From: a virus
IMG/VR virus record: IMGVR_UViG_3300032236_002285
Span: 1 to 64,000 of that record
Length of the DNA: 64,000 nucleotides
Direction: 5' to 3' (one strand)
Both the position numbers and the translations under genes were made by a program. This document shows positions 50,240-56,162 of this stretch, piece by piece; the first letter of the stretch is position 1; every line of letters starts with the position of its first letter. The notes below the pieces were generated by a model, which was not told the DNA's origin, searched no databases, and was given only the letters and a program-made list of their open reading frames with translations.

Positions 50240-50605
50240 ATGTATTTAAATAATAAAGACCTTTATATTGAGGTAATCGTATCAAAAGCACAAGGCAAAC
50301 TAACAAGAAATGCTGAAAAAATGTTAGAACTACTTGCCAAAAAAACAATCAAAAAAATGAGATATTGGTCTAATGATGATAAATTAGACTGCTACCAATC
50401 AGGACTATTAGATATGTTCCAAAACTGGTATAACTTTAATGAAGATAAATCCGTAAATGCTTTCGCATACTTTACAGAGGTATTCAAAAGAGGAATCGCC
50501 AAAGGTTATAACGAACTTTATAAGAAGAAAGGTGATAACGAACACTTAATCAAATTAATTTCAATTGAAGGTTCAAACGATGGACAAGGACTTCACTCAC
50601 TCTAA
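50240..50605 (+). CDS. 55: Late-transcription sigma factor, T4 gp55-like
   Basis: A 121-residue protein (T4 gp55 is 185). The opening YLNNKDLYIEVIVSKA parallels the T4 gp55 start (YVNNKELLQAI). The helix pair DCYQSGLLDMFQNWYNFNEDKSVNAFAYFTEVFKRGI has the sigma-region-2 pattern seen in gp55, for core RNA polymerase and -10 binding. The usual gp55 C-terminal clamp-binding tail is not in this frame. A second small frame begins inside its last codons. In T4, gp55 directs polymerase to late promoters (TATAAATA); the TTAATATATA motif here is the likely counterpart. Confidence 0.78.
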   Translation: MYLNNKDLYIEVIVSKAQGKLTRNAEKMLELLAKKTIKKMRYWSNDDKLDCYQSGLLDMFQNWYNFNEDKSVNAFAYFTEVFKRGIAKGYNELYKKKGDNEHLIKLISIEGSNDGQGLHSL

Positions 50606-50747
50606 TATTAATATCAAAACATTTGATATAGTTATGGAACCCGCCTTTGGTGTGAGTTCTATACCTATAACTATACTTCCCTCTCGACAGAAAAGAATAA
50701 AGCAAAAAATTGAAAACATCTTTAAAATAAAAAATCCACTCAATTGA
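50580..50747 (+). CDS. Small overlapping frame after the late sigma gene
   Basis: A 55-residue basic-ended frame from the ATG at 50580, overlapping the sigma gene end by 26 nt in the +1 frame. The sequence (NINIKTFDIVMEPAFGVSSI, then KRIKQKIENIFKIK) is not recognised. It could be an independent small gene or the missing C-terminus of the sigma factor reached by frameshift. Its stop lies in the terminator stem. Confidence 0.45.
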   Translation: MDKDFTHSNINIKTFDIVMEPAFGVSSIPITILPSRQKRIKQKIENIFKIKNPLN

Positions 50748-50757
50748 GTGGATTTTT
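50730..50757. terminator. Bidirectional hairpin terminator
   Basis: AAAAATCCACTCAA and TTGAGTGGATTTTT are directly abutting 14-nt arms between the sigma unit and the convergent glutamine synthetase gene. Confidence 0.85.
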
Positions 50758-50773
50758 ACTTTATAATCATTTA

Positions 50774-51865
50774 TTATGCTTCTGTTGAAACTTCAACTTC
50801 TGAGTAAACCGTTTGTAACATTCTGAGTGATACTTGATAAGGGTCGCAGTTAGAAGCAGGTCTTCTATCTTCAAAATATCCTTTGTTTTCTACAATTGCT
50901 TGAGCTGGAATTCTTATAGAAGTGTCTCTTGTAGAGAATCCATAACTAAAATCGTTGATACTTGATGTTTCATGAGCACCAGTTAATCTTTGGTCGTTGT
51001 ATAATCCATAAACTTCAATGTGTTCTTTTTGATATTTTTCCAATCTACTCATAGTATCTTTGATAATATCTAAACCACCTTCTTCTCTCATTTCTTTAGT
51101 AGAGAAGTTAACGTGACAACCTGTTCCGTTCCAATCACCTTTAATTGGTTTTGGGTGAAGTGATACATTTACGTTATGTTTCTCCGCAACTCTATCAAGA
51201 ATATATCTTGAAACCCATAGTTGATCAGAGCCATTTAAAGCGGTAACTGGTCCAATTTGATATTCCCATTGTCCTAAAAGAACTTCCGCATTTATACCAG
51301 AGATATCTAAACCAATTTCCATACACATATTCATATGTTCTTCGACAATTTCTCTACCAATTACATTGTCAGCGCCTATACCACAATAGTAATCACCTTG
51401 AGGTCTTGGAGCGATGTTTTCTTGAAAGCCTAATGGTAAACCAATACCTTCACCAAAAGGTGAACCTGACTTGTGCATTAATGTGTATTCTTGTTCCCAA
51501 CCAAACCAAGGAAGTTCATTTTTAACATAATTTTCGTTTAACTTTAATGCTTTTAATTTTTCGGATAATGCTTTTCTGTGATTTGTTTTGTGTGGTGTTC
51601 CATCTGGGTTTAAAACTTCACAAAAAACTAATTTATTTGTTCCTTTTCTGAAAGGATCATAGGTTACAAATACAGGCTTTAGTAAACAATCTGTATTTTT
51701 ACCTTTACCTGATTGAGCTTGTAGTGTTGAACTCCCATCAAAAGACCATACCGGAAAATCATTAGGACTCATTGAGTCGATTTCATTAGTAATTTTAGTT
51801 TTACTTCTAAGTCTTTGTGGATTTGAACCATCAAGCCAAATGTACTCTAATTTGATATTACTCAT
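50774..51865 (-). CDS. glnA: Glutamine synthetase, type II (GSII)
   Basis: A 363-residue protein, full length for the eukaryote-like GSII class. Visible signatures are VWSFDGSST (residues 39-47), WFGWEQEYTL (about 120-129), GINAEVLLGQWEYQIGP (about 190-206), GDWNGTGCHVNFST (243-256), and RRPASNCDPYQV near the C-terminus. The metal- and ATP-binding acidic residues and the GAHET/ R-binding stretch (GAHETSSINDF) are intact, so it should be active in making glutamine from glutamate and ammonia with ATP. A metabolic gene of this kind is unusual in a phage. It stands alone between terminators and has no TTAATATATA, suggesting separate, perhaps early, expression. Confidence 0.95.
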   Translation of the reverse strand: MSNIKLEYIWLDGSNPQRLRSKTKITNEIDSMSPNDFPVWSFDGSSTLQAQSGKGKNTDCLLKPVFVTYDPFRKGTNKLVFCEVLNPDGTPHKTNHRKALSEKLKALKLNENYVKNELPWFGWEQEYTLMHKSGSPFGEGIGLPLGFQENIAPRPQGDYYCGIGADNVIGREIVEEHMNMCMEIGLDISGINAEVLLGQWEYQIGPVTALNGSDQLWVSRYILDRVAEKHNVNVSLHPKPIKGDWNGTGCHVNFSTKEMREEGGLDIIKDTMSRLEKYQKEHIEVYGLYNDQRLTGAHETSSINDFSYGFSTRDTSIRIPAQAIVENKGYFEDRRPASNCDPYQVSLRMLQTVYSEVEVSTEA

Positions 51866-51947
51866 ATGTTATTGTTTTTTTTTATTTTATATCAATTATT
51901 AAACTTTGTTTAATTTAATTCCTAAAATATGTACAAAATTTAAAATA

Positions 51948-52253
51948 ATGAATAAGGTAATTTTACAACTTTGGGAGGAATCTAACACCAAAGAAGGTTT
52001 TCTTAGTAATGGGTGCTCATTACATATAAATTTAAAAGAAAGAGGTGACTACGTTGCCGATGTTTATAAAGATAGAGTAGATTCATCTATCCCTAATGAA
52101 TATGATAGAATAGTAGGTGAATGTGTTGAGGTCTTTGTAGATGATAGATTATACAATATGATTGTTGAGGAAAAATCAGTTAAAATAAATGAGGCTTCTT
52201 TTCAAAATCTACTAAATTTTCAAGAGATAATTTTTAACAGAAATAATATATGA
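51948..52253 (+). CDS. Hypothetical small protein
   Basis: A 101-residue soluble protein from the ATG at 51948 (MNKVILQLWEESN). A longer reading from 51906 adds 14 residues without support. It contains GCSLHINLKERGDYV, followed by a mostly beta segment. Its last codons overlap the start of the next gene by 4 nt (ATGA type). Not recognised. Confidence 0.7.
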   Translation: MNKVILQLWEESNTKEGFLSNGCSLHINLKERGDYVADVYKDRVDSSIPNEYDRIVGECVEVFVDDRLYNMIVEEKSVKINEASFQNLLNFQEIIFNRNNI

Positions 52254-52597
52254 TAACTTTTTTATTTTACATAGTATCAATTCTTTTTGCCTGTAACGAA
52301 GTTTATTATGTACTTAATAAGCTACGATTAGATACTAATTTTAAGAACTTGGATCTTACATCATCTAGTAAGGTAGATATAGCACATTATTTATTTAGAA
52401 TTATGTTTTGGGTTTGGATGATTATTGGTATTTGGTCATCTCAATCTGGCTTATTTATATTTCTGTGTATATTACACGCTGTTAGATTTCCTTTTTATCA
52501 TCTTAGTAGAAGACTTTATATAATTTGGACTAATATCTTACCAAGTATATCCTTTATCTTTATACTTATAATATTAGTTTATAAAATTAAAGGTTAA
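52250..52597 (+). CDS. Small integral membrane protein
   Basis: A 115-residue protein with about four hydrophobic segments (residues 2-20, 47-65, 67-84 and 92-111), positively charged short loops (RRLYIIW) and no signal peptidase site. It is coupled to the upstream gene by a 4-nt overlap and converges with the gp4-like gene, overlapping it by 11 nt. It could be a holin-type or membrane-modifying protein; nothing decides this. Confidence 0.68.
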   Translation: MITFLFYIVSILFACNEVYYVLNKLRLDTNFKNLDLTSSSKVDIAHYLFRIMFWVWMIIGIWSSQSGLFIFLCILHAVRFPFYHLSRRLYIIWTNILPSISFIFILIILVYKIKG

Positions 52598-53114
52598 ACT
52601 TTTTTAGATGTTGTTCAGTTATGATAATAAATTCATAGCCTTTCTTATTACACCAATTTATCATAGTCTCCCATTTTTGCTTATTTTTATAAGCCATTTT
52701 AAGGTCATATTCAAAGTTTTTTAACTTCTTCATTCCAGACTCTGGTACGTTAAGGTTGCCTTCATTTAAGTCTTGAACCATCTTATACTCTTTGAATGGT
52801 TTAACCTCTACAACGACTTGTTTAAGTACTCCATCTGAATTTCTCATCTCATAGTAGAAGTCAGGATAATAACAATGTTCTTTTATCTTAGTATCACCGT
52901 TATCAAAGTGTGTCATTTGATATGGTATTCTCATACACTCAGCACCCCACTTTGTAATGGTTTTATTATTATCTAACCAAGTCATTATTTTCTTTTCCCA
53001 AGAACTTCTGTAATAAACACCACCTTGTGTATTTAATTTAATTACTTTGTCTTTGTACTTTGGTATATAGTTGCCTTGATTATAGTTAGTGTTATTTGGT
53101 TTTGAATTTAACAT
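52587..53114 (-). CDS. 4: Head completion nuclease-type protein (T4 gp4-like)
   Basis: A 175-residue protein. VYYRSSWEKKIMTWLDNN (residues about 33-50), WGAECMRIPY, CYYPDFYYEM and VVVEVKPFKEY (about 99-109) are the conserved blocks of the T4 gp4 (gp50/65) head completion family, including the restriction-enzyme-like D...E-x-K core. Length is near T4 gp4 (150). It acts in finishing DNA-filled heads before tail joining. The last codons overlap the convergent membrane-protein gene. A TTTATATATA element lies about 20 nt upstream. Confidence 0.88.
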   Translation of the reverse strand: MLNSKPNNTNYNQGNYIPKYKDKVIKLNTQGGVYYRSSWEKKIMTWLDNNKTITKWGAECMRIPYQMTHFDNGDTKIKEHCYYPDFYYEMRNSDGVLKQVVVEVKPFKEYKMVQDLNEGNLNVPESGMKKLKNFEYDLKMAYKNKQKWETMINWCNKKGYEFIIITEQHLKKFNL

Positions 53115-54434: not shown

Positions 54435-56162
54435 ATGGCATCTTATAATCAATTTCAAGCCGGCTCAGGTCAATCAAATTTCACTTATACAAATAGTGCT
54501 GTTGAAAATAAAGGACTTTTTAGTAGAATTTTAAGAAGTTTGTCATCATACGGTATGAACTATGATGATATGATTGTTAGAAACCAAGTTGGTATTGGTA
54601 TCAACGAAGATCCATTTGCTGCTAGAGGAAACTCAATGTATGATTTCTTTTCACAAAGAGCAGTGGCTTCTGTTTTAAACAGAAAATCAATTCCTTATTT
54701 AGATAAAGCATACGCTGATAAAAGAAGAATTCTAAGAGAATATTCAATTAAAGATGAAATCAGAGATTTCGTTAGTTCTATTACAGATGAAAGTATTGTT
54801 TATAATGATGAAAGAGATTTTTGCTCACCTGCTGCTTTAGGTAATGACTATTCTCAAGAAATTAAAGATAAATACCAAGAATATTTTGAAAAAATTTATA
54901 ATAAATATGGCTTTGGTGATAACATCACAGCTTGGAATATGATGAGAGATTTCTTAATTGATGGTTATCTAGCATTGGAAGTTATTTATGATGATAAGAA
55001 AAAGAATATTATTGGTTTTAATAGATTAAGACCTGAAACATTAGTTCCCGCATTTGAACCAACAATTGGTCACTTGTGGATCCAGTTTCCAGAAGATCCT
55101 CAATTAAGAAGAATCTTCTTAGACTCTCAAATTGTTTATATCTCATATTCAACTCAAAATGATTATTCAGAAACATCTTATGTAGAGGGTTTAATTAAAC
55201 CTTATAACCAATTAAAGATTCTTGAACAAACAAGAGTAATGTTTAACATTATTAATGCTACGGTTTATCAAAAGTTTACTATTCCTATTAAGGGTTTATC
55301 AAGACAAAGAGCCGAAGAACAAATCGGTCAATTGATTAATGACTATTCGGAAGAAGTTGAATGGGATGATTCATTAGGTACATTAACTATTAATGGTGCT
55401 AAACACTTACCTTATAATAAACAAATTTGGTTCCCTGAAGGAGATGCTGGTACTCCAGCTATGGAATTGGTTTCACCTGAAGGACATAATTTGAATGAGT
55501 CAGATATGTTGACTTGGTTCTACAATGCTCTAAAAAGAGCTTCTAAAATTCCTTTCCAACGTTTTGATAAAGAAAATGGTGGTGGTAACTTAATCAATGA
55601 CTCATCAGATATGACAAGAGATGAGATTAAATTTTATAACTTTATTAATAGATTAAGAGCTAACTTCAAAGAGATTATCGTTAAGCCGTTAAAACTTCAA
55701 ATGTTAATTGAGTTTCCTGAATTAAAAGAAGATGAGGTTCTTATGAACCAAATTGATATTATCTTTAACTCAAATCAAGTATTTGAAGAATGGAAAAAAT
55801 TAAATAATTTGGCTAAGAAAGCTGAAATATTTGGTACTTTAGTTGGTATTATGAATGGTGAAAAACCTTACTTCCATATTGAGTATTTAATTGATAACGT
55901 ATTCAAATTAACTCCAGAAGAAAAAGCAGAAAACCAAAAATATTGGGCTAAAGATGCCGCTGGTGCTCCTGGTGGAGGCGGTGGTGCTGGTGCTCCAGGT
56001 GGTGAAGGCGGTGGTGAAGGCGTTGTTCCTGGTGAAGGCGGTGAAGCCGGTGGTGGTGAGGCTCCTGAAGCTGGTGGTGCTCAAGCTGCTCCTGAAGCTC
56101 AGGCGGCTCCTGAAAATCCTCCTCCAGCCGAAGGTGGTGGTGAAACCGAATTTGAATTCTAA
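54435..56162 (+). CDS. 20: Portal protein (T4 gp20-like)
   Basis: A 575-residue protein. The conserved portal blocks include FDAR-like DPFAARGNSMYDFF, FVSSITDESIVYND (residues about 112-125), MMRDFLIDGYLALEVIYD, IVYISYSTQND, and the stem/wing segment YNALKRASKIPFQRFD followed by SDMTRDEIKFYNFINRL, which is highly typical of gp20. It forms the dodecameric entry ring for DNA and docks the terminase. The last 65 residues are a Gly/Ala/Glu/Pro-rich tail (GGGGGAGAPGGEGGGEG type), absent in T4 and probably disordered. Terminated by a strong bidirectional hairpin. Confidence 0.93.
   Translation: MASYNQFQAGSGQSNFTYTNSAVENKGLFSRILRSLSSYGMNYDDMIVRNQVGIGINEDPFAARGNSMYDFFSQRAVASVLNRKSIPYLDKAYADKRRILREYSIKDEIRDFVSSITDESIVYNDERDFCSPAALGNDYSQEIKDKYQEYFEKIYNKYGFGDNITAWNMMRDFLIDGYLALEVIYDDKKKNIIGFNRLRPETLVPAFEPTIGHLWIQFPEDPQLRRIFLDSQIVYISYSTQNDYSETSYVEGLIKPYNQLKILEQTRVMFNIINATVYQKFTIPIKGLSRQRAEEQIGQLINDYSEEVEWDDSLGTLTINGAKHLPYNKQIWFPEGDAGTPAMELVSPEGHNLNESDMLTWFYNALKRASKIPFQRFDKENGGGNLINDSSDMTRDEIKFYNFINRLRANFKEIIVKPLKLQMLIEFPELKEDEVLMNQIDIIFNSNQVFEEWKKLNNLAKKAEIFGTLVGIMNGEKPYFHIEYLIDNVFKLTPEEKAENQKYWAKDAAGAPGGGGGAGAPGGEGGGEGVVPGEGGEAGGGEAPEAGGAQAAPEAQAAPENPPPAEGGGETEFEF

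What the first reader, a model, noticed from the sequence alone, without database searches (positions are those of the whole stretch)
50774..51865. Complete GSII glutamine synthetase in a phage
All signature blocks of the GSII class appear intact. Nitrogen-assimilation enzymes are rare in phage genomes; a T4-type phage with an apparently active GSII is noteworthy. It may raise glutamine for nucleotide and amino-acid synthesis, or be repurposed. It is isolated from the late motif, so probably expressed early.
Basis: partly seen in the sequence, partly recalled or inferred. Interest (0 to 1): 0.75.

Follow-up and report, generated by a model that had tools for sequence, protein, structure and literature searches.

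The report
Phage-borne type II glutamine synthetase
A giant bacterial virus carries a complete, well-preserved enzyme gene for making glutamine from ammonia, and most close relatives keep it at the same genome position, so it is an old working part of this virus lineage rather than a stray piece of host DNA.

Summary
Confirmed: window 50774-51865, minus strand, encodes an intact 363-residue class II glutamine synthetase (GSII). Of 26 human GS positions compared, 23 are identical, including all those labelled as ligands; three others differ. The model folds like GSII (TM 0.84-0.89). The window opens a 476-kb virus record related to the 635- and 642-kb Mahaphages; it is no chimera. The gene keeps its place between gp55-like and gp4-like genes in relatives from dozens of metagenomes. 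It forms a phage-only clade (support 100, long stem), at most ~54% identical to sampled bacterial GSII, under purifying selection (dN/dS 0.06-0.10 in close pairs). A backbone tree fits one gain and two losses; empty sites exist. The 735-kb phage probably acquired GSII separately. The gene has its own terminator and a conserved upstream inverted repeat, and lacks the late-like TAATATA motif found before 31/31 portal genes. Best reading: a genuine glutamine-forming enzyme, expressed apart from virion genes, feeding host glutamine users. Activity and timing are inferred. Phage GS is already reported (moraphages 2025, jumbo phages 2026), so this is a well-resolved member of a known kind.

The parts
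50774..51865 (-). class II glutamine synthetase (GSII/GlnII), 363 aa
   Evidence: ORF; NF041605 416 bits; PDB GSII hits; active-site residues; AlphaFold model matches GSII structures
50730..50757 (.). bidirectional intrinsic-terminator-like hairpin between the convergent gp55-side genes and GS
   Evidence: 12-bp stem with T tracts on both strands; terminator-like hairpin downstream of GS in 81 of 83 relatives
51899..51913 (.). 15-bp inverted repeat TTAAAC-TTT-GTTTAA, midway between the divergent starts of GS and the 51948 ORF; candidate operator or promoter element of the GS cassette
   Evidence: AAACAAAGTTTA occurs once in the 476-kb record; AAAC-n-GTTT in 30 of 41 distinct GS upstreams and almost never upstream of the other genes tested except the divergent ORF, which shares it
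51948..52253 (+). small unknown ORF divergent from GS (ATG start at 51948 preferred over the TTG at 51906), conserved neighbour
   Evidence: neighbour of GS in most relatives; no Pfam or PHROG match
50240..50605 (+). gp55-like late sigma factor (weak family match), conserved flank of the GS site
   Evidence: phrog_234 E = 4e-6, no Pfam match; 80-100% identical neighbour in GS-bearing relatives of the clade
52587..53114 (-). gp4-like head closure protein, conserved flank of the GS site
   Evidence: phrog_218 E = 3e-32; synteny
54435..56162 (+). portal protein, lineage marker
   Evidence: phrog_213; relatives LR745206 84%, LR756502 82%

Best explanation
The gene encodes a catalytically competent GSII that makes glutamine from glutamate, ammonia and ATP in the infected cell. 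It was acquired once, early in one Mahaphage lineage, kept at one locus under purifying selection, and is transcribed from its own unit rather than from the virion-gene promoters. Shown: intact gene, residues, fold, clade, synteny, selection, separate cis-elements. Inferred: activity, decamer assembly, timing, escape from host control, benefit.
For: One search compared 26 human GS positions with the window: 23 are identical, including the positions labelled beforehand as metal, glutamate, ammonium or ATP ligands (D63, E134, E136, E196, E203, H253, R299, E305, R324, E338) and others such as N248, R319, Y336, R340; 3 differ (P160 to D, N246 to D, T328 to Q). Key residues are invariant across 15 phage proteins. 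AlphaFold model pLDDT 83, pTM 0.88, the 50 PDB rows shown all GSII. dN/dS 0.057-0.104 in the 12 closest pairs. Conserved synteny and GS in 48 of 60 relatives that hold both flanks. Backbone tree: three changes, one gain plus two losses if rooted on the 636- and 735-kb phages. Phage-only clade, SH-aLRT 100. Codon usage and GC3 like the rest of the genome. Own terminator and upstream repeat. No match in G000 to PF13522, PF00117, PF00733, PF13507, PF00543, PF00909, PF01645 or PF00478.
Against: No activity, expression or oligomer data. Score is below the NCBIfam equivalog cut-off of 500 (416), though bacterial GSII such as L092, L106 and L110 also fall below it (402-408). Two phage sublineages lack GS at the site, so it is dispensable there. 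Clade-specific inserts near residues 53-55, 107-117 and 133-142 might alter kinetics or regulation. The record is a linear fragment, so partner genes may lie elsewhere, and not every glutamine-using family was searched.
Confidence: 0.78

Rival explanations
1. The protein keeps the GSII fold but has been repurposed, for example as a ligase for another amine, or as a protein that binds a host regulator.
For: Long stem branch separating the phage clade; three clade-specific inserts, the one at 133-142 in a lower-confidence loop.
Against: Residues for ammonium (D43, E299), glutamate, metals and ATP are kept; low dN/dS.
Confidence: 0.12
2. It is host DNA: an assembly chimera or a very recent transfer.
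For: Opposite strand to its immediate neighbours; GC 34% against a genome gene mean of 30%.
Against: Same gene order in contigs from many metagenomes, a 99% identical contig under another sample id (L005), closest sampled cellular protein only about 54% identical, GC3 and codon usage typical of the phage.
Confidence: 0.01
3. It is a neutral passenger held only by its position among essential head genes.
For: Lost in two sublineages, with clean empty sites.
Against: Purifying selection and conserved residues; own conserved terminator and upstream element; GSII reached phages more than once.
Confidence: 0.05
4. It serves mainly to take up ammonia released by phage-driven nucleotide salvage, for example by a GMP reductase.
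For: IMPDH/GMP-reductase-like ORF in 4 of 6 GS-bearing records.
Against: Not found in the window's own record or in the 735-kb phage; the ORF scores far below the GMP reductase cut-offs; co-occurrence was not tested.
Confidence: 0.1

Closest known systems
Cellular class II glutamine synthetase (GlnII/GSII; human GLUL, yeast 3fky, Streptomyces 4bax, maize 2d3a)
   Same: fold, catalytic residues, length class, full-length homology
   Different: phage-only clade on a long stem, three short inserts, below the NCBIfam equivalog cut-off
Glutamine synthetase genes reported in moraphages (PMC12619734) and jumbo phages (PMC13037316)
   Same: large phages carrying GS; Bacteroidota hosts predicted for most moraphages
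   Different: the passages read give no class, locus, phylogeny or cis-elements for GS; whether moraphage GS falls in this clade was not tested
GSII of the 735-kb phage LR756501/LR756503
   Same: GSII in a Mahaphage-clade genome
   Different: 50% identical, groups with Bacteroidota GSII at modest support, other genome position: probably a separate acquisition

Membership tests
Class II glutamine synthetase | beta-grasp plus catalytic domain over the full length | tested here: met
   Pfam PF03951 and PF00120; PDB GSII over residues 4-357; Foldseek
Class II glutamine synthetase | conserved metal, glutamate, ammonium and ATP residues | tested here: met
   26 human positions compared, 23 identical; the 3 that differ (P160D, N246D, T328Q) were not among those labelled as ligands
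Class II glutamine synthetase | score over the NCBIfam NF041605 equivalog cut-off | tested here: not met
   416 bits against 500; three of six cellular GSII tested also fall short at 402-408, so this curated threshold is not a defining feature of the class
Class II glutamine synthetase | decamer of two pentameric rings | not testable with these tools
   only a monomer was predicted
Class II glutamine synthetase | ATP- and ammonia-dependent glutamine formation | not testable with these tools
   needs an enzyme assay
Phage auxiliary metabolic gene | host-type metabolic gene stably resident in a phage genome | tested here: met
   synteny with head genes, clade, selection
Phage auxiliary metabolic gene | changes host metabolism during infection | not testable with these tools
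   no infection data

The most novel reading that the evidence does not exclude
Probability: 0.2. Interest if true: 0.65.

Novelty: new member of a known kind. Interest (0 to 1): 0.42.

Why it matters
It turns an anecdotal phage GS gene into a defined, old, selected trait of one huge-phage lineage, with natural GS-less relatives as controls. That makes the question of whether phages take over host nitrogen assimilation testable by comparing sister phages with and without the gene.

Tried and rejected
One alignment call failed on a stop codon in L060 and was rerun with shorter ends. Rfam found nothing at the locus. Sigma-70 promoter matches were no more frequent than in shuffles. T4-like TATAAATA was not clearly enriched upstream of genes (11 against 6 on the other strand). 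A dedicated phage glutamine pathway was sought and not found in this record. GS elsewhere in contigs that lack it at the site was sought without success, but those contigs are fragments. Assembly chimera was considered and rejected.

Full report
Observation. Window 50774-51865 on the minus strand is an uninterrupted 363-residue ORF with an ATG start. It matches the two Pfam glutamine synthetase domains, NCBIfam GlnII at 416 bits and solved GSII structures with E near 1e-100 over residues 4-357. The window is bases 1-64000 of a 476,236-base linear virus record that holds one copy of the gene.

Catalytic residues. 23 are identical in the window. Three differ: P160 is D158, N246 is D244 and T328 is Q322. 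None of these three was among the positions I had labelled as metal, glutamate, ammonium or ATP ligands; N246 was listed as a loop position, and D at that place is also seen in Streptomyces GSII (alignment) and in every row of the 24-sequence alignment. The labelled ligand positions are all kept, and their equivalents are invariant across 15 phage proteins. The labels rest on my knowledge of human GS, not on a structure read here.

Fold. AlphaFold2 on a 24-row alignment gave pLDDT 83 and pTM 0.88. The 50 Foldseek rows shown are all GSII chains, TM 0.84-0.89 by query length. Short inserts relative to cellular GSII lie near residues 53-55, 107-117 and 133-142; the last is in a lower-confidence loop.

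Family calibration. The score is below the NF041605 equivalog cut-off of 500. Of six cellular GSII tested, three pass it (500-544 bits) and three from Bacteroidota and Planctomycetota do not (402-408 bits), so failing it does not argue against GSII.

Distribution. In 50,697 phage records only four hold a homolog: LR756502 (642 kb, 72%), LR745206 (635 kb, 72%) and the two 735-kb records LR756501 and LR756503 (50%). Al-Shayeb et al. 2020 place their genomes over 634 kb in the Mahaphage clade with Bacteroidetes as predicted hosts; their main text does not mention glutamine (PMC7162821). In IMG/VR, 260 and 451 stretches encode relatives, with different search patterns. The 80 best come from 68 metagenome ids by my own count of the names.

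Phylogeny. With 42 phage and 31 cellular representatives plus human GS, the window falls in a clade of 17 phage-only rows (SH-aLRT 100) on a stem of 0.64. Its highest identity to a sampled cellular protein is 53%, and 54% for any row of the clade. Starred branches force at least four changes between phage and cell labels, so phages probably acquired GSII more than once; the 735-kb phage sits with Bacteroidota sequences at modest support. Limits: quick search, long branches, and cellular rows restricted to the 80 closest hits of a capped scan, so the donor is not resolved.

Locus. In GS-bearing relatives of this clade the order gp55-like gene, GS, small ORFs, gp4-like gene is kept, with the portal usually next. 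Among portal-bearing contigs that hold both flanks, 48 of 60 have GS and 12 do not. In several of the 12 the gap is about 160 bases, a clean empty site; in L282, L294 and L307 another ORF, cyclase-like to the eye, fills it. The contigs of the 12 show no GS elsewhere, but they are fragments. A five-gene backbone tree with the 636-kb and 735-kb phages as outgroup needs three changes, most simply one gain and two losses; the outgroup branches are long. GS and backbone distances correlate (Mantel r = 0.53, 0 of 2000 permutations as high), which fits mainly vertical descent with some exchange.

Selection. Nei-Gojobori dN/dS is 0.057-0.104 in the 12 closest pairs and 0.157 at the median of the 184 pairs with pS under 0.6; synonymous changes near saturation in the wider pairs inflate the ratio. 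GC is 34% (genome genes 30%), GC3 and codon usage are typical of the genome.

Expression signals. TAATATA occurs upstream of 31 of 31 distinct portal starts and 2 of 41 GS starts. Other structural genes vary: 7 of 21 for the major head protein and 1 of 34 for gp4, which carry other TATATA variants, so the motif as written is not a complete late-gene marker. 30 of 41 GS upstreams carry AAAC-n-GTTT, in the window as TTAAAC-TTT-GTTTAA at 51899-51913; the core AAACAAAGTTTA occurs once in the record. I arrived at these motifs by looking at enriched words and aligned upstreams first, so the counts describe motifs chosen after looking, partly on the same sequences. That TAATATA marks late genes is inferred from its place before structural genes. 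A terminator-like hairpin follows GS in 81 of 83 relatives and in the window at 50730-50757. None of this shows timing.

Metabolic context. G000 has no match to GATase_6, GATase, Asn_synthase, GATase_5, P-II, ammonium transporter, Glu_synthase or IMPDH; control genomes ring for each. Other glutamine-using families were not searched. Related records do hold some: a GATase match in the 735-kb phage and in G002, a Glu_synthase-domain protein in the 642-kb phage and an IMPDH/GMP-reductase-like ORF in four records.

Known or new. GS genes in large phages were reported in moraphages (PMC12619734) and jumbo phages (PMC13037316). What is added here is the class, the phage-only clade, the fixed locus with empty sites, the selection estimate and the cis-elements.

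Noticed in passing
L324:1039-2559 (LR756502): Stand-alone 506-aa protein with the FMN/Glu_synthase domain of GltB in the 642-kb phage.
   Followed up: partly
L325:1108-2190; also LR756502, LR745206, G002: IMPDH/GMP-reductase-like ORF in 4 of 6 GS-bearing phage records, not in the window's record; best family GMP reductase at 119 bits, far below its cut-off.
   Followed up: partly
L282:1780-2436, L294:6748-7440, L307:6752-7408: GS-less relatives carry a nucleotide-cyclase-like ORF at the GS site; identity judged by eye only.
   Followed up: no
window:56656-58536 (-): Phage-encoded RNase II/R-type exoribonuclease (RNB domain).
   Followed up: no
window:51906-52253 (+): The listed TTG start is probably wrong; the ATG at 51948 fits better.
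   Followed up: partly
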